Source: a virus. Taken from it: 38,375 nucleotides of DNA. How positions within the stretch are numbered: the first letter of the stretch is position 1; every line of letters begins with the position of its first letter. Location of the stretch: positions 1 to 38,375 of the IMG/VR virus record IMGVR_UViG_3300044608_001003. The stretch is one strand, 5' to 3'. The translations under genes and the position numbers were made by a program. Shown piece after piece: positions 1-38,375 of the stretch. The notes beneath the pieces are model-generated. The model did not search any database and had not been told where the DNA came from. It worked only from the letters and a program-made list of their open reading frames with translations.

Positions 1-763
1 GATACTCAGCAAGAGGGGACATGATATTAGGATCGTTCTCTTCAGTCTGAGAAACAATTTCCGATTCTGTACCCTTATCAAGAATGTTTCCGAGTCCATC
101 CATTACAAAGTTAAATGATTTAGACCAGACGTAGAATCGCTCTTTGGCAAGTTCCTGGTCATCGTAATCAGAAATTGCTTGGTTGATTGAGTCTCTGTAC
201 TTATCACCTTGTGAGAATCCAGTTCTACGATCTTCTCGTCTAATGTAATCTCGTTGAGTGTTATCGAAATTCGATACGATATAAACTTCAGGAATCTCGG
301 GATTCATCTCGTTAGGAATGACATCAAAATGATGGGGTAAAAGAACCCTTAAGTTAAGCTTTCCGTCCTGTGGATAGCATTGAATAGCGCATTGCCCATC
401 ATACTTATAAGACTCGTTTGCCATTCTTAAAACGGTATTAACGTCAAGGTCAGAGAAGATCGTATCAAGCTCTTCAATTTTATCTGCCCCTACAAATACG
501 CTTCTAGTCGGTGGTTTTTTATACAGGCTAGCCTCTGCCTTAGATATGCGCCTCTGAAGGTTAATTGATGCAAAAATAGACATCTCTGAAACGGTATTAG
601 CGTCTAGCTTTGATTCAAGATATTCTTTCACATACTGGTAAAAGTTATCTTCCTGCATATTCTGTTTCTTGTAGGAAACAATCTTTCGCTGAATGTTTTC
701 ATCCGACTTGATTTCTCGAATGATTTGTTTTCTGTAAGAAATATCTAATAGTTTTTCTTCCAT
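1..763 (-). CDS. Portal protein, N-terminal part (cut by window edge; version A)
   Basis: This is the first 254 codons of a portal gene cut by the window edge. It is almost the same as the start of the complete portal at 34535-36130. In the places I translated, the differences are synonymous except one Asp/Glu change in the stretch reading YKYDGQC here and YKYEGQC there. The ATG at 763 lies 2 bp after the stop of the large-terminase gene. Portals form the dodecameric ring at the capsid vertex through which the terminase pumps DNA. On a circular map this fragment and the complete portal are the same gene, in two strain versions. Confidence 0.9.
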   Translation of the reverse strand, partial: MEEKLLDISYRKQIIREIKSDENIQRKIVSYKKQNMQEDNFYQYVKEYLESKLDANTVSEMSIFASINLQRRISKAEASLYKKPPTRSVFVGADKIEELDTIFSDLDVNTVLRMANESYKYDGQCAIQCYPQDGKLNLRVLLPHHFDVIPNEMNPEIPEVYIVSNFDNTQRDYIRREDRRTGFSQGDKYRDSINQAISDYDDQELAKERFYVWSKSFNFVMDGLGNILDKGTESEIVSQTEENDPNIMSPLAEY

Positions 764-765
764 GA

Positions 766-2121
766 TTATCTTCTTCCCGTGAAAGGTTTTAAAGTTCCAA
801 TCTTTTCAGTATGAGTTTTGTACTCATGTATGTAATAACCAAGCCCAGAAACTATGTGTTGATAATCATTGTTATCATCTTCCTGGTATGACGAGCCTTT
901 TTTGATTTTTGTAAGCCTTAGCCCTTCATCAACCTTGGCAGCGTCCTGATATACATAAAGTCTAACCTCACCAGCTTCATTAAGACAATGAGCATTTACT
1001 ATGTTCTGCCTAGCCCTTATTGGTGGATTTTCATTGGGAACGTGCATAGTAACCTTGAGCGTCGATTGATTTTTTTGCACATAATTCTGGAGAGTTTTCT
1101 GGATTATTTCGTAATCTGTTCGATTGCTTCTTGAGTCTCTATTTTTACCGTTTCTGTCTCCAAATACCCTTATTTCTCTAACAGTTTCAAGACATCCATC
1201 AAAAATCATCTCATCAATTATTTGTTGCGTATTAAATCCCTCAACTATAAAGCATTTCCCTATATGAAAGACCCCATTAATTACTTGCGCATAGCCAGAT
1301 GACATTGGCTTACCTGACCCGATGTTAAAGTCATGGAAAAAATCTAGTGGCAGATTCGGGTTTATTTTGTACTTAGTGTTTTTAAGGAATTGCTTTTCTG
1401 GGTTGTATGCATAGTAAGGAGTTTGCCCCTGTATGCTTACCCATTGCCCTTGAAGCATCCTTTTCGCCATCATTGGATCAAGATCTTTTTTAAGATTTTC
1501 AATGTACCAAGGTGGCAGGAATGGGTTTTGCTCAGTTAATGAATAAAATACTTTTTTTGATTTATCATTTTTTTCTATAAATTCTTTATAAAGATAATGA
1601 GATGGTTCATCTGGATTTGTTAAACACAAAAGATAGTTTTCTTTTACCGAATTTAATCTTCCAATTCTCATTTTAACTGCATCATATAGTTGTTTATTTG
1701 ATTCAGATGCTTCTTCTATAATTACGCCACTTAATTCAAGTGATCTAAATTTTTCAAGCTCCCCACTATCATATGAATCACCAATAATTTCTGATCCATT
1801 TATTAAAGTAATTCTCATTTCTGATTTATTATATTCCTTAATCGCATGAGGAATATCAGCAATGTGGGTCAAAATAGTTTGCCACAATGTTCTTTTTAGA
1901 TCTTTAAGTGCTCTGCGCAATATTAGCTGCCTTGATTTTTTATTTTTTATTGCATGAAGGGCAATTATATGTGCTGCACAAATACTTTTGGCTGATCCTA
2001 TAGAGCCACTCATTAGCATCTCAAGTATTCCTGAGTCGTAATTAAAATTATTATAATACGATATTGCTTCAATTTGCCACGGAACTAGTCTTGGATCAAA
2101 CTCCTGGAATAGTGGAGTCAT
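766..2121 (-). CDS. terL: Terminase large subunit, version A
   Basis: This is the packaging motor: an ATPase that drives DNA into the procapsid and a nuclease that cuts concatemers. Of 451 residues, the Walker A loop is GSIGSAKS (39-46) and Walker B is VIIEEAS (133-139). The C-terminal RNase H-like nuclease shows HDFN (Asp264) and GDRNGK (Asp322), with a late acidic patch and YQHIVSGLGYY near the end. It occupies the same slot as the large subunit at 36133-37392 but shares only superfamily motifs with it, so it is a non-orthologous replacement. It overlaps the upstream HNH gene by 26 bp and ends 2 bp before the portal start. Confidence 0.93.
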   Translation of the reverse strand: MTPLFQEFDPRLVPWQIEAISYYNNFNYDSGILEMLMSGSIGSAKSICAAHIIALHAIKNKKSRQLILRRALKDLKRTLWQTILTHIADIPHAIKEYNKSEMRITLINGSEIIGDSYDSGELEKFRSLELSGVIIEEASESNKQLYDAVKMRIGRLNSVKENYLLCLTNPDEPSHYLYKEFIEKNDKSKKVFYSLTEQNPFLPPWYIENLKKDLDPMMAKRMLQGQWVSIQGQTPYYAYNPEKQFLKNTKYKINPNLPLDFFHDFNIGSGKPMSSGYAQVINGVFHIGKCFIVEGFNTQQIIDEMIFDGCLETVREIRVFGDRNGKNRDSRSNRTDYEIIQKTLQNYVQKNQSTLKVTMHVPNENPPIRARQNIVNAHCLNEAGEVRLYVYQDAAKVDEGLRLTKIKKGSSYQEDDNNDYQHIVSGLGYYIHEYKTHTEKIGTLKPFTGRR

Positions 2122-2590
2122 TTAGTAATTTGTGGATATGTTTCCATTCTCTTCCTGCCCTTATTTCTGAGATTCTTGTCGTACTAACTTTAAATATTTT
2201 TCCAAGTTCAATATGACTCCACCCGGGTCTATGACCATTTGGCTTTCTTTTTGGCATTGTTAAAATAGTTAAAACTTTTATATCATCAAGAATTGCCCTT
2301 CCATGATTCTGACCCTTTTTTGGTTTACATAAACCAATTTTCCATGCATGTCTGACATTTTCTTTTTGAGTTAAAAGTTCAAGATTTGTTAAATCCCAAT
2401 TCATTTTATTTCCATCTATATGATTTATAGTTAAACCAACAGGTATATTCCCGTTTGCCCTTTCCCATACATATTTATGAATGGTTGAAATTTTTTTAGT
2501 TTCACTATTCCAAATACAGGGGTAGTTATCAGAATTAAAATGAACCGGCTTACCTTCAAAAAATATTCCTGATTTGCAACTTTTTCTCAT
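2096..2590 (-). CDS. HNH homing-type endonuclease between terS and terL (version A)
   Basis: This 164-residue protein has a compact HNH core at about residues 39-75: HKYVWERANG, then INHIDGNKMNWDLTNLELLT. That layout is usual for free-standing and intron homing endonucleases of the HNH_3 type. The C-terminal part (SHIELGKIFKVSTTRISEIRAGREW) reads as a helix-turn-helix that would give DNA specificity. It begins in an ATGA overlap with the small-terminase stop and runs 26 bp into the large-terminase gene, so it is translated with the packaging genes. The gene at 37376-37921 holds the same place in the other version but is only distantly related. It could instead be a packaging co-factor, as HNH proteins are in some cos phages. 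Confidence 0.88.
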   Translation of the reverse strand: MRKSCKSGIFFEGKPVHFNSDNYPCIWNSETKKISTIHKYVWERANGNIPVGLTINHIDGNKMNWDLTNLELLTQKENVRHAWKIGLCKPKKGQNHGRAILDDIKVLTILTMPKRKPNGHRPGWSHIELGKIFKVSTTRISEIRAGREWKHIHKLLNDSTIPGV

Positions 2591-2982
2591 TTTTGACCTT
2601 CATAATTTAATGAGATCTTGATCTCACCATTAGTCTGAACATCTTGCTTATCACCATAGGTCTTATGAAATCTTGTCTTAAGAGCAAAGATAAGGGCCGT
2701 TGTGTCTATTTTTTTAGAATCAACCCCAGGTGTTGGTTTGCCTGATATTTTAGCGTTTAACCTAACTTCATGCCAGTCTTGTGCAAGTTGGCAACCAATA
2801 TCAAATGCTTCCTTAAATTCAGAGATAGAACCAATCCATTCATAAATTGTGGATCTAACAACTCCAACAGTTGCACCAAAAGTGTCGATTGTCCTTCCTT
2901 CTTTAAGGTGATCAATTAACATCTGGCAAAACTCGTCCTTGTATTTGTAACCCTTTGTTTTAATATTGTCCGAATTATTCAC
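2587..2982 (-). CDS. terS: Terminase small subunit, version A
   Basis: This 131-residue protein recognises phage DNA for packaging. The N-terminal half has a helix-turn-helix (TFGATVGVVRSTIYEWIGS, about 39-57) and the C-terminal half ends its conserved part with FALKTRFHKTYGDK, a pattern I associate with the Sf6-type small terminase family. The start codon is GTG, overlapping the upstream stop as GTGA. It is nearly identical to the copy at 37918-38316 up to YGDK. After that the last 17-20 residues differ completely, so the tail travels with its own HNH and large subunit, as expected for the region that contacts the motor. Confidence 0.88.
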   Translation of the reverse strand: MNNSDNIKTKGYKYKDEFCQMLIDHLKEGRTIDTFGATVGVVRSTIYEWIGSISEFKEAFDIGCQLAQDWHEVRLNAKISGKPTPGVDSKKIDTTALIFALKTRFHKTYGDKQDVQTNGEIKISLNYEGQK

Positions 2983-3158
2983 TCGTCAACTCCTATAAAA
3001 GCAACGGTGAACAATCTCTTATCAAGTAAGTAGGATTGCATTAGCTTATTTATGACTTCAATTTCGGATGGGTTTGCTTCTATTGTGATTGAGACTGAAC
3101 CGTCTACACGAGTTTTGATTGCCGACAAAACGGCATTAATAGCACCAATTTCTTGCAT
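2979..3158 (-). CDS. Small conserved-looking phage protein upstream of terS
   Basis: I do not recognise this protein of about 59 residues. It has an alternating beta/alpha look (SVSITIEANPSEIEVINKLMQSYLL), with no membrane segment and no signal peptide. I chose the ATG at 3158, preceded by GGTGGGAAG. A TTG at 3191 would add 11 residues but has no clear ribosome binding site. It is coupled to the small terminase by a GTGA overlap, and its last 20 codons recur at the right edge of the window. Its position as the first gene of the packaging and head block suggests a late role, but the sequence does not show which. Confidence 0.7.
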   Translation of the reverse strand: MQEIGAINAVLSAIKTRVDGSVSITIEANPSEIEVINKLMQSYLLDKRLFTVAFIGVDE

Positions 3159-3207
3159 CTTCCCACCGGGTAAAATGTTTCGAGTCACCAACTCTTACCA
3201 TCAGGCT

Positions 3208-3222
3208 ATGTAATATTTACAT
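3208..3222. promoter_or_regulatory. Dyad ATGTAA-TAT-TTACAT, possible operator
   Basis: Perfect 6-bp arms surround TAT in the gap between the packaging block (leftward) and the lone rightward gene at 3252. On the minus strand a TTGACG hexamer (3230-3235) lies just upstream and the dyad falls where a promoter spacer would be, but no good -10 follows. The core TAATATTTA also occurs in the stronger dyad at 7858-7876. A binding site for a phage regulator controlling late leftward transcription or the 3252 gene is an inference. Confidence 0.4.
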
Positions 3223-3251
3223 GGTTCGTCAATAGGGTTTATTCTATTAAA

Positions 3252-3494
3252 ATGAAGAATCTTATCGGATTTATTCTAACTGTACCACTTATCTTCTCAA
3301 ATGATTATCTCTTGCGAGCAATTTATACAGACTATAGCGCTGAAGAAGAGACCGAATTTAAGGACAGTGATTCGGAAATTCCTAACAACTCAGAGCCAGA
3401 ACATTATTCTTGGAGACTTGGAACTCCTGATAATGAAATAGAAACCGAGATAATTTACGACGAGCCTAGTCCTTGTGGATTAGCTTCTGATTAA
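3252..3494 (+). CDS. Isolated rightward gene: small acidic protein with N-terminal signal or membrane segment
   Basis: I do not recognise this 80-residue protein. Residues 1-22 begin MKNLIGFILTVPLIF and look like a signal peptide or single membrane anchor. The rest is very acidic (many Glu/Asp, such as EEETEFKDSDSE) and would be periplasmic if exported. It is the only rightward gene inside a long leftward unit and overlaps the end of the HNH gene at 3466 by 29 bp in opposite orientation. No clear Shine-Dalgarno is seen. TTTACA (3217-3222) and TATTCT (3241-3246) could be a weak promoter placing the transcript start almost at the ATG. A lysogenic-conversion or exclusion type moron is one possibility. 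Confidence 0.5.
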   Translation: MKNLIGFILTVPLIFSNDYLLRAIYTDYSAEEETEFKDSDSEIPNNSEPEHYSWRLGTPDNEIETEIIYDEPSPCGLASD

Positions 3495-3732
3495 ATACTC
3501 CCCAACCGTTTAATTCCATCCATCTTCTGACAGATATAAATTTCTTCATCATCGTTTGATTCCCAAGACTGTGAAATAAATTATGGCATGGCTGGCATAC
3601 TGGAATCATGTTCCACGGTGCGTTAGAATACTCAGGAAAAGCCTTTCGACTGTATATGTGGTGGTATGCCACAAAATTATCCCTGCTTTCATTGCATACA
3701 ATACATGGCTGATCTGATTTGTAGTTCTTCAT
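3466..3732 (-). CDS. HNH endonuclease with zinc-binding cysteines
   Basis: This 88-residue protein has the zinc-supported HNH fold: CIVC near residue 10, AYHHIYSRKAFPEYSN in the middle, then NMIPVCQPCHNLFH. Two CxxC pairs hold the fold and the HH/N/H residues form the nick site. This class differs from the NUMOD-linked HNH enzymes next to the terminase genes. In many cos phages a small HNH protein near the terminase is needed for specific end cutting, so a packaging role is possible. The start ATG touches the stop of the 28-codon gene upstream (TAA and ATG adjacent). Confidence 0.85.
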   Translation of the reverse strand: MKNYKSDQPCIVCNESRDNFVAYHHIYSRKAFPEYSNAPWNMIPVCQPCHNLFHSLGNQTMMKKFISVRRWMELNGWGVFNQKLIHKD

Positions 3733-4159: not shown

Positions 4160-4560
4160 TATTCACCTACTTCTTTCAAAGTACATCGAGCAATAAACTC
4201 ATACATTTCACCGAATGATTCAAATTCTTCATTGGCAATTTTCCCCAAAACATCACATAGCTTTTCGTTTTTAGCTTTTAATTGCTCTATTCGATCATTC
4301 ATCTGCTTCATTTTAGTTCCGTTGATGTTTTCTTTTAGAAAAGCATTTTCAGCTTTAAGTTTTTTTAATTTTCCATATCCAATGCTATTCATGTGATTTC
4401 TAAGACGATCTTCATCTTCTTCAATCTCTTTCTGCTTATAATCGACAGCGGCTTGCCATGCTTTTAACTGTATTGTATGCCTAAAGTCATAGGCATCAAA
4501 ATCTATGTCCCAAGCATCTTTAAACCAGTTATCAAAAGCTTCTTTGTCATTATTGTTCAT
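4159..4560 (-). CDS. Coiled-coil phage accessory protein
   Basis: This 133-residue protein is of unknown function. The first 30 residues are acidic and aromatic (FDNWFKDAWDIDFDAYDF). A long helical region follows with heptad-like segments (KLKKLKAENAFLKEN and IEQLKAKNEKLCDVL). It ends KEVGE, as the gene at 3816-4085 ends KEVGEE. The start is in an ATGA overlap with the upstream alanine-repeat gene. No membrane segment or catalytic motif is visible. Confidence 0.75.
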   Translation of the reverse strand: MNNNDKEAFDNWFKDAWDIDFDAYDFRHTIQLKAWQAAVDYKQKEIEEDEDRLRNHMNSIGYGKLKKLKAENAFLKENINGTKMKQMNDRIEQLKAKNEKLCDVLGKIANEEFESFGEMYEFIARCTLKEVGE

Positions 4561-4922
4561 AGATGCTCATAATTTTGAATTAAATAAATGATTGACTCAA
4601 TTTGATTTTGTCTTTCAGTAGCATAAGCAGCATAAGCAGCAGCAGCAGCAGCATTAGCAGCATCAGCAGCAGCAGCAGCATAAGCAGCAGCAGCAGCATA
4701 AGCAGCAGCTCTTACTGCACAATCAATTGCGAAGACTTCGACTAGAAATCTAGGCATAAGTCTAACTGCTAACCAGATTTTATCCTGATAAGTAATGTTT
4801 TCTAAGTCTAAAAATTCCTCAAGCTGTCCATTAAAGTCACTGTAATACTTTAGGTAATTTTCATACCTATCAGCACATGGTTTTAGTAATTTAATTATTT
4901 CTTTGTTTACTCTGATATCCAT
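4557..4922 (-). CDS. Alanine-repeat phage protein (putative immunity-protein-like)
   Basis: This 121-residue protein has an N-terminal domain containing YQDKIWLAVRLMPR, then a run of about 35 residues built almost only of Ala with spaced Tyr, Asp or Asn (AAAYAAAAAYAAAA style), and a short tail, ERQNQIESIIYLIQ. Many phages carry such proteins, often filed as putative immunity or alanine-rich proteins; I cannot confirm the function. The Ala/Tyr periodicity suggests a long helix with one aromatic stripe. It has a strong ribosome site (AGGAGGT, 6 bases before ATG). The coding DNA is an AGC/GCT trinucleotide tract that can slip. Confidence 0.75.
   Translation of the reverse strand: MDIRVNKEIIKLLKPCADRYENYLKYYSDFNGQLEEFLDLENITYQDKIWLAVRLMPRFLVEVFAIDCAVRAAAYAAAAAYAAAAADAANAAAAAAYAAYATERQNQIESIIYLIQNYEHL
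4620..4709. repeat. Imperfect AGC trinucleotide tract
   Basis: About 90 bp consist of AGC units broken by single variants (ATAAGC, ATTAGC, ATCAGC), encoding the Ala-rich helix on the minus strand. Changes in multiples of 3 bp would alter helix length without shifting frame. Confidence 0.9.
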
Positions 4923-4932
4923 TTAATACCTC

Positions 4933-5304
4933 CTAACAATAGAGCTCTTCATGGCCGTTCATCCATGTAGAATAGGTTTCGTCAGATTCTTTTCTCTTTG
5001 GCTTCCTGCCTCTATTGGATTTTTGAACCTTAAATATCTCAATATTATCTACCGTGATGTTTGTCTCGTTTCCATCCTTAAAAGAAATATATTCATCTCT
5101 ATCAAGCTCTTTTATGAATGTTTCACATACCAGCTTAGCTACACTTAAGGTCTTATGCCTTCCGTTGTTCTTATAGGCAATAACTGAACCTCTAGCATAA
5201 CAGTGATTCTGAGAGATATTTATTCTCTGACCTGTTTCTGCTCTGTAAATATTTCCAGTATTAGAAACTAGAAGTTCCGGATGTTGTTTTGATTTCCTGA
5301 TCAT
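4933..5304 (-). CDS. NUMOD4/HNH-like protein with the nuclease centre lost
   Basis: This 123-residue protein follows the plan of NUMOD4-HNH endonucleases: HPELLVSNTGNIYRAETGQ (NUMOD4-like, about 8-26), then KTLSVAKLVCETFI (helix before HNH), then YISFKDGNETNITVDNIEIF. Active relatives have NHIDGN at the last position; here it is SFKDGN, so the catalytic histidine and asparagine are gone. A basic C-terminal stretch, RGRKPKRK, resembles an AT-hook. Together this suggests a DNA-binding protein, perhaps a regulator, derived from a homing endonuclease. It is preceded by AAAGGTAG and overlaps the upstream stop (ATGA). Confidence 0.7.
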   Translation of the reverse strand: MIRKSKQHPELLVSNTGNIYRAETGQRINISQNHCYARGSVIAYKNNGRHKTLSVAKLVCETFIKELDRDEYISFKDGNETNITVDNIEIFKVQKSNRGRKPKRKESDETYSTWMNGHEELYC

Positions 5305-8383: not shown

Positions 8384-8595
8384 TGTGTCCTAAATGTCGC
8401 TCAGAATTTGATTTACTTTACCAATCTGATGAAGTAGTTTCTCAGACGAAATGCAGATGCAGGTCAAATACTAAACTAATCAACGGTAAAAAACCGTTGG
8501 ACTATGCCTTGGAGGTACTAAATGAAGAATTTATTTCAAAAAATCAACGACATTCAAAAACAAGTAAAAACCGTTCACAAAGGTGGAACGGTTAA
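8368..8595 (+). CDS. Small zinc ribbon protein
   Basis: This 75-residue protein has CPKC at residues 7-10 and CRC around 29-31, a metal-binding knuckle. The C-terminus is basic (SKTSKNRSQRW). ATG 8368 is preceded by GGTAGGTATTAA. The last 74 bp overlap the start of the ERF gene in another frame, so this is real dual coding or the true protein ends sooner. Two hairpins lie in its 3' part. Confidence 0.65.
   Translation: MQEILMCPKCRSEFDLLYQSDEVVSQTKCRCRSNTKLINGKKPLDYALEVLNEEFISKNQRHSKTSKNRSQRWNG
8481..8593 (+). promoter_or_regulatory. Two hairpins with AACGGT/ACCGTT half-sites flanking the ERF start
   Basis: The first hairpin is CAACGGT (8481-8487), AAAAA, ACCGTTG (8493-8499). The second is AACCGTTC (8569-8576), a 9-nt loop, GAACGGTT (8586-8593). 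The same hexamer appears four times, as inverted pairs on each side of the ribosome site (GGAGG 8512-8516) and ATG 8522. They could act as protein sites or as RNA hairpins that tune translation. Confidence 0.5.
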
Positions 8596-9223
8596 GATTA
8601 ATGAAAAATCATCTTATTCTGCCGTTCTTCACGATGACGTAACAGCTTTACTTCACGACCCTGTCGCTAATGCTGGTATTGTTGCTATGTCACGAATGGA
8701 AAGCTGCGAGCTTGAGTCGTTTGAAGTTCAAAGGTCATACAACGGACAAACCACCAGTTCCCGTTCATATATGGTCAAAGTGTGGGCCTCTGTTACGTTT
8801 ATGAACAGCGATAACCCTACGGAACAGTTCCAAACCCAGTGTTTCGCCTATGCTATCGATTCCGGAGACAAGGCGACAGGGAAAGCTTATTCAATGGCTA
8901 TTAAATATTGCTACCTGAAGACGTTTATGCTTGAGTCTTGCGACGATGAGGAATCTAGGGATTATGAAAACTCTTGGAAGAATGAACCACTTATAAAACA
9001 ATATGAGCAAGTAAGCACAAATCCAGTTTATAACAGACAAGCTAGAGGAGATCAACCTAAGCCTACATTTCAGGTTGATGGCATTGGCCAGCAGCGACCA
9101 ATGGTAGGACTTGCTTCAGATGCTCAGAAAAATGCTTTAAAGAAGATGGGTATAAAATTCAATGACGACATTTCTAAGCAGGAAGCATCTGAACTAATAG
9201 CCCAAAACAATAAGAGGGGATAA
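8522..9223 (+). CDS. erf: ERF-family single-strand annealing recombinase
   Basis: This 233-residue protein has the ERF signature: a beta-rich core followed by YAIDSGDKATGKAYSMAIKY and then CYLKTFMLES (about 115-145). ERF proteins anneal complementary single strands and circularise or recombine phage DNA. A flexible linker (about 160-195) leads to a C-terminal helical domain, SDAQKNALKKMG to KQEASELIAQ. Next come SSB and an exonuclease, the usual partners. Strong ribosome site (GGAGG, 5 bases before ATG). With no polymerase or helicase gene seen, this recombination set is probably central to concatemer formation. Confidence 0.92.
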   Translation: MKNLFQKINDIQKQVKTVHKGGTVKINEKSSYSAVLHDDVTALLHDPVANAGIVAMSRMESCELESFEVQRSYNGQTTSSRSYMVKVWASVTFMNSDNPTEQFQTQCFAYAIDSGDKATGKAYSMAIKYCYLKTFMLESCDDEESRDYENSWKNEPLIKQYEQVSTNPVYNRQARGDQPKPTFQVDGIGQQRPMVGLASDAQKNALKKMGIKFNDDISKQEASELIAQNNKRG

Positions 9224-34076: not shown

Positions 34077-34596
34077 TGAACCCTTCCGTCTCGATGCGAA
34101 TATCATTAAGTGCACTTCTAATTGCTGCTAGGTCTATTTTCTGTTTTCTTTCTTGTTTTGTGTCTTCTTTAAGTGAATCAACTCTTTTAATTATGCCGCC
34201 AACATCCTTTAAGCCAAAGAATTGCCTTTTAGGGAGCGTATCTCCGACATTATGGTTGTAAGCTTTAAGAGTGTTATCACCTTCCTGGATCTTTACTTTC
34301 ACAATATTCTTTTGGGTTTGTGATTCTTCAAACGAGGAAAGCATTTCACCAGTCAAAACCATGTCAACTGAGTTTACAGACACACCCTTAGATTTGGCAT
34401 ACTCAGGAGAGTAAGGCTTAAATGATCGTCCATCTATATCAGATCCATTCAATGTTCTTTGGGCCATAGCATCAACAGCAAGCTCATAGAACAGCTTTTT
34501 TTGATCCTCTGACGGCTCGTATCCAAGAAGTTCTTTAAGATTGAACCTCTGAGACACTTCCTTCTTCGAGTATTTCGGTGGATTGATCGCTGCCAT
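34057..34596 (-). CDS. Phage virion morphogenesis protein (gpG-like)
   Basis: This 179-residue protein contains AVDAMAQRTLNGSDIDGRSF, KPYSPEYAKSKG, VDMVLTGEMLSSF, HNVGDTLPKRQFFGL: the sequence order seen in Mu gpG-like and related morphogenesis proteins (an amphipathic helix, the LTGxM turn and the QFFG end). It acts in head or tail completion. It overlaps the portal 3' end by 62 bp in another frame. Confidence 0.75.
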   Translation of the reverse strand: MAAINPPKYSKKEVSQRFNLKELLGYEPSEDQKKLFYELAVDAMAQRTLNGSDIDGRSFKPYSPEYAKSKGVSVNSVDMVLTGEMLSSFEESQTQKNIVKVKIQEGDNTLKAYNHNVGDTLPKRQFFGLKDVGGIIKRVDSLKEDTKQERKQKIDLAAIRSALNDIRIETEGFNGEDQD

Positions 34597-36130
34597 TTAT
34601 TCCCTCAAACTCATCAACTTCTTTTATGTGTTGAATTGCCTGTTCCTTGGTCATTTTCTTGAGATTCATAAGAACGTGAACCCGTGACATTAAACCCATA
34701 TCGATTTCTTTCTGGGCAATCTCCAAAAGCTCCATTTCTGTCTTGATCATCTCAGGCTTTGCAAACTCAACCTGTAGATTCATTGCTGCATCATCTTCGG
34801 GAAGCTGAATCTGGTAAATGTCGGACAGGATTAACTCTCCATCTACACGTTCGCCTCTGAATGCTTTGATGTAGCAAGAAATCACGTTAAATAGTTTAGC
34901 TTCAACCTTTTCGAACAATGAAACGTCCTCTTGAGATGCTTCAAATTTTTCAACCATCTGAAGTAGCTTTTCAACTCCACTAGATGCGGTCGATGCCTGT
35001 GGGCTTCCAGATACCACTGATGTATCTAGTCCACGGCTTGAAAGGAAAGCTCTTAGGAATGATTCTCTGAACTCTCTAATACCAGTCAAATCTGATCCAG
35101 GATTAGCAAAACCAAACTCTCCTTGAGTTGGATTTTGTGGATCAACAGGAATGATAATTACTTTATCAGGCCCTATCCTCATATTCTCAGGAAGATGATT
35201 AGCATCTCCACGATAATAAGCTTGGGCATGACCCTGCATTTCTACAGTTTGAAACTCTGAGGTTAGAATGACGTTATAAAGGATAGTCGCATCAAATAGC
35301 GAATCCCAGCCTCTCACCCAGAACTCAAAGTTTTTACCTGAGCTCACGTCAATAAAAGGAAGGCACTGATACTCAGCAAGAGGGGACATGATATTAGGAT
35401 CGTTCTCTTCAGTCTGAGAAACAATTTCCGATTCTGTACCCTTATCAAGAATGTTTCCGAGTCCATCCATTACAAAGTTAAATGATTTAGACCACACGTA
35501 GAATCGCTCTTTGGCAAGTTCCTGGTCATCATAATCAGAAATTGCTTGGTTGATTGAGTCTCTGTACTTATCACCTTGAGAGAATCCAGTCCTGCGGTCT
35601 TCTCGTCTAATGTAATCTCGTTGAGTGTTATCGAAATTCGATACGATATAAACTTCAGGAATCTCGGGATTCATCTCGTTAGGGATAACATCAAAATGAT
35701 GGGGTAAAAGAACCCTTAAGTTAAGCTTTCCGTCCTGTGGGTAACATTGAATAGCGCATTGGCCCTCATACTTGTAAGACTCGTTTGCCATTCTTAAAAC
35801 GGTATTAACATCAAGATCGGAGAAGATCGTATCAAGCTCTTCAATTTTATCTGCCCCTACAAATACACTTCTGGTCGGTGGCTTTTTATATAGACTAGCT
35901 TCTGCCTTAGATATGCGCCTCTGAAGGTTAATTGATGCGAAAATAGACATCTCAGAAACGGTATTAGCGTCTAGCTTTGACTCAAGATATTCTTTTACAT
36001 ACTGGTAAAAGTTATCTTCCTGCATATTCTGTTTCTTGTAGGAAACAATCTTTCGCTGAATGTTTTCATCCGACTTGATCTCTCGAATGATTTGTTTTCT
36101 GTAAGAAATATCTAATAGTTTTTCTTCCAT
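34535..36130 (-). CDS. Portal protein (complete)
   Basis: This 531-residue protein forms the vertex ring for DNA entry and tail docking. The N-terminal region includes FYQYVKEYLESKLDANTVSE; the wing and stem contain LPHHFDVIPNEMNPEIPEVY and FWVRGWDSLFDATILYNVIL. SGVEKLLQMVEKFEASQEDV corresponds to the stem/crown helix, and the acidic C-terminus (TEILEEGSVSEVQS) tapers off. It starts 2 bp after the large-terminase stop, and its first 254 codons recur at 1-763. The family-level class is not certain (SPP1-like size). Confidence 0.85.
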   Translation of the reverse strand: MEEKLLDISYRKQIIREIKSDENIQRKIVSYKKQNMQEDNFYQYVKEYLESKLDANTVSEMSIFASINLQRRISKAEASLYKKPPTRSVFVGADKIEELDTIFSDLDVNTVLRMANESYKYEGQCAIQCYPQDGKLNLRVLLPHHFDVIPNEMNPEIPEVYIVSNFDNTQRDYIRREDRRTGFSQGDKYRDSINQAISDYDDQELAKERFYVWSKSFNFVMDGLGNILDKGTESEIVSQTEENDPNIMSPLAEYQCLPFIDVSSGKNFEFWVRGWDSLFDATILYNVILTSEFQTVEMQGHAQAYYRGDANHLPENMRIGPDKVIIIPVDPQNPTQGEFGFANPGSDLTGIREFRESFLRAFLSSRGLDTSVVSGSPQASTASSGVEKLLQMVEKFEASQEDVSLFEKVEAKLFNVISCYIKAFRGERVDGELILSDIYQIQLPEDDAAMNLQVEFAKPEMIKTEMELLEIAQKEIDMGLMSRVHVLMNLKKMTKEQAIQHIKEVDEFEGINGSDQSTEILEEGSVSEVQS

Positions 36131-36132
36131 GA

Positions 36133-37392
36133 TTATCTCACCTTGGTGCTTGGAGTTAGATTTAGTGTAGTTTGAGGCAATAGCTTATGGCAACCATAAC
36201 CTAGCGCATCAGATATATGGGTTAGCATTGGATCTGTCTTTTGATCGAGCTCGTTGTTTCTCCACTGAACCTTCTCAAGGTCGTTAATAAGCTTTTTGCA
36301 TCTAGGATGAATCAGAATCTTGCCTTCTTTTAGCCTGAGATTCATTAAGTTTACCCGATCTTTTACGAATGGATTATAAGTAGACTCGATTATAAACCCG
36401 GCTGCTTTAATGATGTCAAAATCAGATTGACCTGATGTTTTCCTGTTTCGTCCGGTTGAGTCTGGGATAACCCGAGCACCTTTGTATTTCTTTGACCACT
36501 CAAATACAGCTTTTGGAGTATCTGAGTTTTCAAGAAACCACTCATCTATGACTTGGATTTGTCCATTAATAACTTGAGCAACGACGGAACAATGGGGCAT
36601 CACGTTAAAATCGGCAAAAATAAATTTTGTCCCTGGATATTCTTGGAAGTCTTTTACGTGATCTTCTCTTCTAAACTCATAGTAAACCTGGCCATCTGAC
36701 TCGTCCTGAAACTCTCCATCAAGAAATCTCATACGCTCTCTTTCTGGCATGGATTTAAGCATGTTTAAATAATCTTGATCAATGTTTTCTATATTATCTT
36801 TTGGATTCATTCTTAACCATGCATAGTTATCGGGGTCTAAAAGCGGCTCATTGTCAGCAGGATTAAGCTTTTTGATAAACTGATAATATCCCCAATGCGT
36901 CTTCTCACTTGGGTTAAGATCATAATAGGCTTTCTTTTTTAAATCGTTCTTTTCGGCTAACCTTGTCAACGCCATTTGCACTGATCGGTAGTCCATTTGT
37001 GTAATTTCATTGAAAAATATGCTTGAGTATTCTTTTCCTAGAATTTTCTCAACTCTTTTGTCATCATCAAGTCCAGCAAACCACAACTCTGATCCATTAG
37101 GAAAAGTGATAAAGTAATCTGTCTTATTCCATTGAAGAGGAAGATTAGGAAAGCAAACTTTAGAAACTTTTATAGCGGTGTCCATCCATAATGAAGTTTT
37201 AATAGAGTTAAATGTTTTCCTGAGTGCCACTTGCCTAGATTTAACTTTGCAAGCTCGCACAAACAAAGCGTATAAGATGATAAACGACTTGCCGCTTCTA
37301 CTTCCCCCCAAAAGAGAAATATGTTTACAATCAGAACTTAATAGTTCTAATGCTTTTTTTTGAATGGTAGTTTTTTTAAACTCTTGCGACAT
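36133..37392 (-). CDS. terL: Terminase large subunit, version B
   Basis: This 419-residue motor has Walker A GGSRSGKS (29-36) and Walker B SSIFFNEIT (123-131). The nuclease has FADFNVMPH (Asp261), PDSTGRNRKTSG (Asp311) and DPMLTHISDALGYG near the end. It is shorter than version A and clearly a different lineage, although both have the same architecture and the same 2-bp spacing to the portal. It overlaps the HNH gene by 17 bp. Confidence 0.94.
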   Translation of the reverse strand: MSQEFKKTTIQKKALELLSSDCKHISLLGGSRSGKSFIILYALFVRACKVKSRQVALRKTFNSIKTSLWMDTAIKVSKVCFPNLPLQWNKTDYFITFPNGSELWFAGLDDDKRVEKILGKEYSSIFFNEITQMDYRSVQMALTRLAEKNDLKKKAYYDLNPSEKTHWGYYQFIKKLNPADNEPLLDPDNYAWLRMNPKDNIENIDQDYLNMLKSMPERERMRFLDGEFQDESDGQVYYEFRREDHVKDFQEYPGTKFIFADFNVMPHCSVVAQVINGQIQVIDEWFLENSDTPKAVFEWSKKYKGARVIPDSTGRNRKTSGQSDFDIIKAAGFIIESTYNPFVKDRVNLMNLRLKEGKILIHPRCKKLINDLEKVQWRNNELDQKTDPMLTHISDALGYGCHKLLPQTTLNLTPSTKVR

Positions 37393-37921
37393 GTTTCCAT
37401 GCTTTTCCCGATGCTATTAAATGGATATTTGCCCTTCCGATATGAATATTGTGATTTTCCTTAAGATATTTAGCAGCTTTAACAAGAGACTTTGTTTTCT
37501 TGTAGACATCTATTATTAAGTTAATGTCCTTTTCTTTTATTTTCGATCTATGATTTTTTTCACCATTTTGACATCGCAAGTTGTTATCCCATGCATGTTT
37601 TAAATTATCTGATCTTGTGACAAGTTCAAGATTATCCAATCTATTATTACTTTTATTTGCATCTTTATGGTTTATCTCAAATCCACTAGGTATTTCTCCA
37701 TGAAATGCCATGTACACAAGTCTATGGACTAACATATTTTTTCTGATCTTATCTTTTTGCAATAATACATGTTTGTACCCATCTCTAGATTTTGCCTGAG
37801 ATAGCACTCTTTCTTTTCTTTTGGCAGTATTATTAAAATAAGTAACATATCTCTCTTTGGATATAATTAACCCATCGTTGGTTGCATCATAATCTTCCCA
37901 ACCAGGAATGCTTCTTCTCAT
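37376..37921 (-). CDS. NUMOD4-HNH homing-type endonuclease (version B)
   Basis: This 181-residue protein has NUMOD4 IPGWEDYDATNDGLIIS (5-21), followed by HNH_3 core HRLVYMAFHGEIPSGFEINH, KDANKSNNRLDNLELVT (about 66-102), and a C-terminal DNA-binding helix (LVKAAKYLKENHNIHIGRAN). All catalytic residues (H, N and the second H) appear present. It lies between small and large terminase with an ATGA start overlap. The location equals that of the other HNH gene at 2096, but the proteins differ outside the core. Confidence 0.9.
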   Translation of the reverse strand: MRRSIPGWEDYDATNDGLIISKERYVTYFNNTAKRKERVLSQAKSRDGYKHVLLQKDKIRKNMLVHRLVYMAFHGEIPSGFEINHKDANKSNNRLDNLELVTRSDNLKHAWDNNLRCQNGEKNHRSKIKEKDINLIIDVYKKTKSLVKAAKYLKENHNIHIGRANIHLIASGKAWKHVARV

Positions 37922-38316
37922 AAATTGATGTCCTGATTATCAATTACAATCTTGATTTCACCAGAACTTTGAACCTCAGCTTTATCACCGTATGTTTTGT
38001 GGAATCTTGTCTTGAGAGCAAAAATAAGAGCAGTTGTGTCTATTTTTTTAGAATCAACCCCAGGTGTTGGTTTGCCTGATATTTTAGCGTTTAACCTAAC
38101 TTCATGCCAGTCTTGAGCAAGTTGACAGCCAATATCAAATGCTTCCTTAAATTCTGGAATGGAGCCAATCCACTCGTAAATTGTAGACCTAACAACTCCA
38201 ACAGTTGCACCAAAAGTGTCGATTGTCCTTCCTTCTTTAAGGTGATCAATTAACATCTGGCAAAACTCGTCTTTGTATTTGTAACCCTTTGTTTTAATAT
38301 TGTCCGAATTATTCAC
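37918..38316 (-). CDS. terS: Terminase small subunit, version B
   Basis: This 132-residue protein matches the other small subunit through YGDK with one visible substitution (GSISEF to GSIPEF), then ends AEVQSSGEIKIVIDNQDINL, unlike version A. It has a GTG start in the same GTGA overlap. Recognition domain shared, motor-facing tail exchanged. Confidence 0.88.
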   Translation of the reverse strand: MNNSDNIKTKGYKYKDEFCQMLIDHLKEGRTIDTFGATVGVVRSTIYEWIGSIPEFKEAFDIGCQLAQDWHEVRLNAKISGKPTPGVDSKKIDTTALIFALKTRFHKTYGDKAEVQSSGEIKIVIDNQDINL

Positions 38317-38375
38317 TCGTCAACTCCTATAAAAGCAACGGTGAACAATCTCTTATCAAGTAAGTAGGATTGCAT
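38313..38375 (-). CDS. Small protein upstream of terS, partial (cut by window edge)
   Basis: The last 20 codons (MQSYLLDKRLFTVAFIGVDE) of the gene found complete at 2979-3158, identical at the protein level. The window edge removes the rest. Its presence in both copies shows the repeat extends past the packaging cassette. Confidence 0.85.
   Translation of the reverse strand: MQSYLLDKRLFTVAFIGVDE

What the first reader, a model, noticed from the sequence alone, without database searches (positions are those of the whole stretch)
2096..2590. Each packaging cassette carries its own homing-type HNH enzyme in the same slot
The HNH genes at 2096 and 37376 are different proteins at the same position, each fused by overlaps to terS and terL. 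Free-standing homing endonucleases often cut the allele that lacks them and spread flanking DNA by repair. Two alternative motors, each guarded by an endonuclease, could be rival selfish cassettes that compete in mixed infection. A packaging co-factor role is the rival explanation.
Basis: inference. Interest (0 to 1): 0.72.

Follow-up and report, generated by a model that had tools for sequence, protein, structure and literature searches.

The report
Two phage packaging alleles, one slot
The two "packaging cassettes" are not two motors in one virus: they are two alternative versions of one locus from co-existing strains, in which the motor gene, the matching tail of its partner protein and a homing-type DNA-cutting gene between them are replaced together as one block.

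Summary
The two HNH genes are real. Both are intact I-HmuI-type enzymes, each overlapping terS (4 nt) and terL. But the "two cassettes" are one locus seen twice. The contig ends overlap (portal 96.5%, terS 92.5% identity), and in relatives a single cassette sits between the early genes of the window's left end and the structural genes of its right end. Cassettes A and B are therefore alleles of one slot in co-resident strains.

HNH does not define the motor: it sits in this slot in 2 of 14 readable TerL-A contigs and 6 of 76 TerL-B contigs. TerL type switches at least 4 times on the portal tree, also in lineages without HNH.

What tracks TerL type is the C-terminal tail of TerS: 62 of 62 distinct tails with TerL-B end in [DE]xx[LIVF]; 11 of 11 with TerL-A hold xLxY, on three TerS body families. 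The exchanged unit is TerS tail + HNH + TerL. In allele A this block is about 99% identical to a phage whose portal differs at 26/78 fourfold sites, so it moved recently. Homing may help; that is not shown.

"Rival selfish cassettes" is partly supported: alternative mobile alleles yes, HNH as guard or driver unproven.

The parts
2096..2590 (-). HNH-A: I-HmuI-type free-standing HNH endonuclease (164 aa) between terS and terL of allele A
   Evidence: HNH_3 E=1.6e-13; phrog_59; 1u3e E=0.0036; 99.4% aa identity to the same gene in L004/L010
37376..37921 (-). HNH-B: NUMOD4 + HNH_3 + C-terminal helical region (181 aa) in the same slot of allele B
   Evidence: 1u3e E=2e-7; AlphaFold model pLDDT 77.8 matches I-HmuI, Foldseek E=2.7e-5
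766..2121 (-). TerL-A (451 aa), large terminase type A
   Evidence: Terminase_3 E=4e-18
36133..37392 (-). TerL-B (419 aa), large terminase type B, about 25% identical to type A
   Evidence: Terminase_3 E=1e-17
2587..2982 (-). TerS-A (131 aa); body shared with TerS-B, tail different
   Evidence: phrog_309 terminase small subunit; alignment
37918..38316 (-). TerS-B (132 aa)
   Evidence: phrog_309
2590..2646 (-). TerS-A C-terminal tail QDVQTNGEIKISLNYEGQK (TerL-A-type tail, xLxY)
37921..37980 (-). TerS-B C-terminal tail AEVQSSGEIKIVIDNQDINL (TerL-B-type tail, [DE]xx[LIVF]-COOH)
753..2682 (-). Recently transferred block of allele A: TerS 3' end + HNH-A + TerL-A, about 99.3% identical to G003 between flanks of about 87-94%
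1..771 (-). Portal 5' part of allele A; redundant contig end, 96.5% to 35368-36138, first 127 bp identical
34535..36130 (-). Complete portal gene, directly downstream of terL
37949..38375 (-). Redundant contig end (terS + end of upstream gene), 92.5% to 2615-3041, last 103 bp identical
2979..3191 (-). Small gene upstream of terS (up70), part of the same gene string
3466..3732 (-). Separate small HNH protein (88 aa, CxxC...CxxC), kept in all close relatives; better packaging-HNH candidate
   Evidence: Pfam HNH E=7e-4, just below cut-off; conserved in 6 of 6 aligned relatives

Best explanation
The window is one circularly mapping phage genome of about 35.3 kb assembled slightly more than once round. 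It ends in allele A of the terS-terL slot on one side and allele B on the other, from two co-resident strains (contig overlap and relatives' maps shown; co-residence inferred). In this phage group the large terminase comes in two interchangeable types, A and B. A TerL swap replaces one block that runs from the last codons of terS to the end of terL: TerS tail, any gene in the seam, and TerL (shown). The TerS body stays and so can keep recognising its own genome's packaging site; the new tail matches the new TerL, most likely because the tail is the peptide that docks on TerL (inferred from strict covariation and from lambda and P22). I-HmuI-type homing endonuclease genes have repeatedly entered the seam between tail and terL (shown as a distribution) and travel with the block. 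They may raise its transfer rate by cutting alleles that lack them, but the exchange also occurs without them.
For: One slot: end overlaps. Only the window has two portals. In G003/G009 window 3242..1 continues straight into 36138..; G001 runs from TerL-B into window 3156..; G002 closes on itself. Exchange: TerL type needs 6 changes on the portal tree, at least 4 forced by well-supported branches, no more clustered than shuffled labels. Tail follows TerL: B motif 62/62 versus 0/11, A motif 11/11 versus 0/62, background C-termini 102/1649. Holds for the 24 B tails that do not overlap terL. Each of three TerS body families has both types; 6 of 6 independent supported contrasts agree. Block borders: A versus G003 differs at 3/212 fourfold sites in TerS 3' end + HNH + TerL, 10/37 in TerS 5' and 26/78 in portal; A and B stop aligning at 2615 in terS and 771 at the portal start. 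HNH is homing-type. Sporadic. Literature: TerS C-terminus binds TerL in lambda and P22 (PMC9611059).
Against: No reads were available, so strain coverage and physical linkage are inferred from contig structure and relatives. The tail patterns were tuned after seeing the tails: a first, stricter version missed 6 B and 2 A tails. The A set is small (11 distinct tails). No TerS-TerL docking was modelled or measured. HNH-B is known only from this window.
Confidence: 0.8

Rival explanations
1. Rival selfish cassettes: each HNH cuts alleles lacking it, and repair copies HNH plus flanking TerS tail and TerL into the cut genome, so the two motors compete as homing units in mixed infection.
For: Intact I-HmuI-type enzymes. 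Recent transfer of exactly the HNH-A/TerL-A block between backbones. The HNH part of that block is the most identical: 0/52 fourfold sites differ. Precedents: free-standing Seg enzymes of T4 and marker exclusion, cited in PMC12724721; intron endonuclease in phage interference competition, PMC11620839.
Against: TerL swaps with similar borders occur without HNH (L012/L003; L133/L052, L137/L098). Most cassettes of both types lack HNH. Several HNHs sit on one TerL type. The genome encodes an Erf-like annealing protein that could make such mosaics unaided. No cleavage site is known.
Confidence: 0.35
2. The slot HNHs are packaging co-factors like HK97 gp74.
For: Position inside the terminase operon and overlap with both genes; HK97 GP74 stimulates cos cleavage (PMC9410871).
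Against: Absent from 12 of 14 TerL-A and 70 of 76 TerL-B contigs. I-HmuI-type rather than the GVE2 type, which is universal in skunaviruses and proposed for packaging (PMC12724721). One copy has a premature stop (L067). A different HNH gene, 3466-3732, is kept in all close relatives.
Confidence: 0.08
3. One genome truly carries two different terminase cassettes.
For: Both are on one contig.
Against: Overlapping contig ends, the second portal cut by the contig end, and one cassette per genome in every relative.
Confidence: 0.03
4. The tail pattern is only a by-product of terS overlapping terL (a DNA constraint) rather than protein docking.
For: Many B-type terS genes overlap terL by 17 nt, with the terL start codon lying inside the last terS codons.
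Against: 24 B tails that do not overlap terL, including those separated by an HNH gene, keep the motif; the conserved IxI part lies upstream of the overlap.
Confidence: 0.1

Closest known systems
I-HmuI and I-HmuI-like free-standing HNH homing endonucleases (SPO1; skunaviruses, PMC12724721)
   Same: NUMOD4/HNH_3 plus C-terminal helical region, single best match by sequence and fold, sporadic presence, intact catalytic motif
   Different: Sits in the seam between terS and terL; no intron; target and homing untested. HNH-A lacks a detectable NUMOD4
lambda/21/N15 hybrid terminases (PMC4669245)
   Same: Chimeric TerS joins one phage's DNA-recognition part to a C-terminus that fits the other phage's TerL
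   Different: Here the join is natural, recurrent, near the extreme C-terminus, and the TerL partners are about 25% identical types with recognisable tail motifs
HK97 gp74-type packaging HNH proteins
   Same: HNH gene next to terminase genes
   Different: Slot HNHs are I-HmuI-type and mostly absent; the conserved 88-aa HNH at 3466-3732 fits this role better
Phage homing endonucleases in inter-phage competition (T4 Seg enzymes; PhiPA3 gp210, PMC11620839)
   Same: Homing-type enzyme on one of two competing related phages
   Different: No cleavage or exclusion shown here; both alleles carry an enzyme

Membership tests
I-HmuI-like HNH homing endonuclease | HNH_3 catalytic domain with intact H...N...N/H residues | tested here: met
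   H66, H85, N89, N92, N97, N106 (HNH-B numbering) invariant in all six aligned proteins
I-HmuI-like HNH homing endonuclease | NUMOD4 N-terminal and helical C-terminal DNA-binding parts | tested here: inconclusive
   HNH-B has NUMOD4 (E=2.2e-5) and C-terminal helices in the model; HNH-A shows no NUMOD4 match
I-HmuI-like HNH homing endonuclease | Sporadic presence, with alleles lacking the gene at the same site | tested here: met
   HNH-less alleles with the same TerS body family: L137 (TerL-A), L098 (TerL-B), L091
I-HmuI-like HNH homing endonuclease | Cuts the allele lacking it and is copied in | not testable with these tools
   needs protein and mixed infection
HK97 gp74-type packaging HNH | Constant presence beside the terminase genes | tested here: not met
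   2 of 14 and 6 of 76 contigs
HK97 gp74-type packaging HNH | Stimulates cos cleavage by TerL | not testable with these tools
   biochemistry needed
Two-domain TerS with C-terminal TerL-binding part (lambda, P22) | C-terminus specific for the partner TerL | tested here: inconclusive
   strict covariation, 6 of 6 independent contrasts; binding not measured

The most novel reading that the evidence does not exclude
A short C-terminal tail of TerS works as an exchangeable plug that specifies the TerL class across different TerS bodies, and homing endonucleases have settled in the seam of this co-adapted unit, so that motor types spread through phage populations as competing homing units.
Probability: 0.3. 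Interest if true: 0.75.

Novelty: new variant of a known kind. Interest (0 to 1): 0.5.

Why it matters
TerL is often used as a phylogenetic marker for tailed phages. In this group its type is uncoupled from the rest of the genome even over short distances, and a contig can show two TerLs without the virus having two. The tail code gives a simple, testable rule for which TerS can work with which TerL. The seam position offers a case where homing endonucleases could drive replacement of an essential motor gene.

Tried and rejected
Two cassettes in one genome: rejected. HNH type predicts TerL type: rejected. The upstream gene up70 type I as an HNH partner: rejected, because L077, L091 and L106 have it without HNH. 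Cellular genomes: a portal-profile scan of genome contigs found no relative. Isolated phages: the closest TerLs are only 25-29% identical, and the TerS proteins looked at (MiCath, R9Y1) show neither tail, so the code is shown only for these two TerL types. PDB match for the 88-aa HNH: none. The 127-bp exact repeat at the left end looks like an assembly-graph branch, but the right end has 103 bp and the assembler is unknown, so it is only suggestive.

Full report
What is in the sequence. The two HNH genes exist as described. HNH-A (2096-2590, minus strand, 164 aa) and HNH-B (37376-37921, minus strand, 181 aa) each start inside the terS stop codon (ATGA, 4-nt overlap) and run into terL (26 and 17 nt). 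Both hold the HNH_3 domain, and HNH-B also holds NUMOD4. I-HmuI (1u3e) is the only significant PDB match for both by sequence and the only one at E<0.001 for the predicted fold of HNH-B.

One slot, not two cassettes. The contig is an IMG/VR virus record. Its ends overlap: 1-771 matches 35368-36138 at 96.5% and 2615-3041 matches 37949-38375 at 92.5%, with HNH and terL replaced in between. The portal overlap has 27 differences, all at third codon positions, with one amino-acid change, as between two strains. The left portal is cut by the contig end. Eleven other contigs with a portal relative have one portal each. In G003 and G009 the window's left part (3242..1, allele A, 95%) runs directly into window 36138.., the structural genes that sit next to allele B here. 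In G001 a TerL-B runs directly into the window's left early genes. G002 (37.1 kb) has a 251-bp end overlap and the same circular order with one terS-terL. The window is therefore a genome of about 35.3 kb (38375 minus 3041) assembled past its start, with allele A at one end and allele B at the other. No reads were available, so co-residence of two strains is inferred.

How TerL type behaves. Scans of viral contigs gave 80 TerL-B (the cap) and 15 TerL-A loci. On a tree of the portal N-terminal part, TerL type needs 6 changes (at least 4 on supported branches), no fewer than with shuffled labels. The two types are freely exchanged next to a conserved portal.

HNH does not track TerL. Where the terS-terL interval can be read, an HNH gene lies in it in 2 of 14 TerL-A contigs (both nearly identical to allele A) and 6 of 76 TerL-B contigs (L065/L067/L068, L072/L073, L114), counted. 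TerL-B thus occurs with HNH-B, two related forms 62% identical, and a further one. HNH-less alleles with a TerS body like the window's exist for both types: L137 with TerL-A, L098 with TerL-B. One copy, L067, has a premature stop seven codons before the end (TCA to TAA). This patchy distribution fits the I-HmuI-like class in skunaviruses, read there as homing enzymes, and not the GVE2-like class, which is universal there and proposed to serve packaging (PMC12724721). In the window a separate 88-aa HNH protein (3466-3732) is present in all close relatives where the region is held and is the better candidate for a packaging role.

What does track TerL. TerS-A and TerS-B share their first 112 residues almost completely and then differ. 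Across 73 distinct TerS tails, all 62 next to TerL-B end in [DE]xx[LIVF] at the very C-terminus, usually after IxIxID. All 11 next to TerL-A hold xLxY and none has the B ending; only 102 of 1649 ORFs of at least 80 aa in these loci end that way. The patterns were simplified after a stricter first version missed eight tails, so the perfect score is partly after the fact. The stronger evidence is in matched bodies. Three TerS body families each include both types, and close pairs (97, 77, 76, 75 and 67% body identity) always carry the tail of their TerL. On body trees with the tail left out, 6 of 6 independent supported contrasts agree (3+2+1; combined sign test p about 0.03, my arithmetic). The motif is kept in the 24 B-type genes that do not overlap terL, including those with an HNH gene in between, so a DNA-overlap constraint cannot explain it.

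The moving block. Allele A compared with G003 shows 0/9 fourfold differences in the terS 3' end, 0/52 in HNH-A and 3/151 in TerL-A, but 10/37 in the terS 5' part and 26/78 in portal. The high-identity stretch covers window 753-2682. These borders nearly coincide with those at which A and B stop aligning (2615 and 771). The same unit, TerS tail + HNH + TerL, therefore differs between A and B and has moved recently between backbones. A swap with similar borders but no HNH is seen between L012 and L003, where the TerS body and portal align in DNA and the tail and TerL do not.

Mechanism. Most likely the TerS tail docks on TerL, as the C-terminus of TerS does in lambda and P22 (PMC9611059). A motor swap then succeeds only if tail and TerL come together, while the TerS body stays with its genome's packaging site. 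Laboratory hybrids of lambda, 21 and N15 work on the same principle (PMC4669245). Homing genes in the seam are carried along. Whether they also push the block by cutting rival alleles is open: the recent spread of block A fits it, but HNH-less swaps and the phage's own Erf-like annealing protein (8522-9223) show that it is not needed. I give HNH-driven spread about 0.35.

Verdict. It was wrong that both belong to one genome, and its linkage test (HNH type predicts TerL type) fails across relatives. The tail code was not in the original finding and is the part most worth following.

Noticed in passing
L011:631-2727: TerL-B-type large terminase with an intein-like insert inside the Walker A motif (between GGSR and SGKT).
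   Followed up: no
L067:2508-2987: Slot HNH gene shortened by a nonsense change (TCA to TAA) seven codons before the end; otherwise 98.7% identical to L065.
   Followed up: partly
window 3466-3732: 88-aa HNH protein with two CxxC pairs, conserved in all close relatives; candidate packaging HNH, no PDB match.
   Followed up: partly
window 4933-5304: Third HNH-like ORF (phrog_959) among early genes, conserved at 36-78% in some relatives, with no Pfam match.
   Followed up: no
window 4557-4922: ORF with a long alanine-rich stretch.
   Followed up: no
L003:3836-6166: ParB-like and PAPS-reductase-like genes (by eye) just upstream of the packaging slot, absent in the window.
   Followed up: no
L007:193-1353, L065:831-1586, L114:1272-2048: DNA-methylase-like genes (by eye) near the start of the terS slot in several relatives.
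   Followed up: no
L041 and L042: Contigs of one metagenome (3300009149) with portals about 70% identical in DNA but opposite TerL types.
   Followed up: partly
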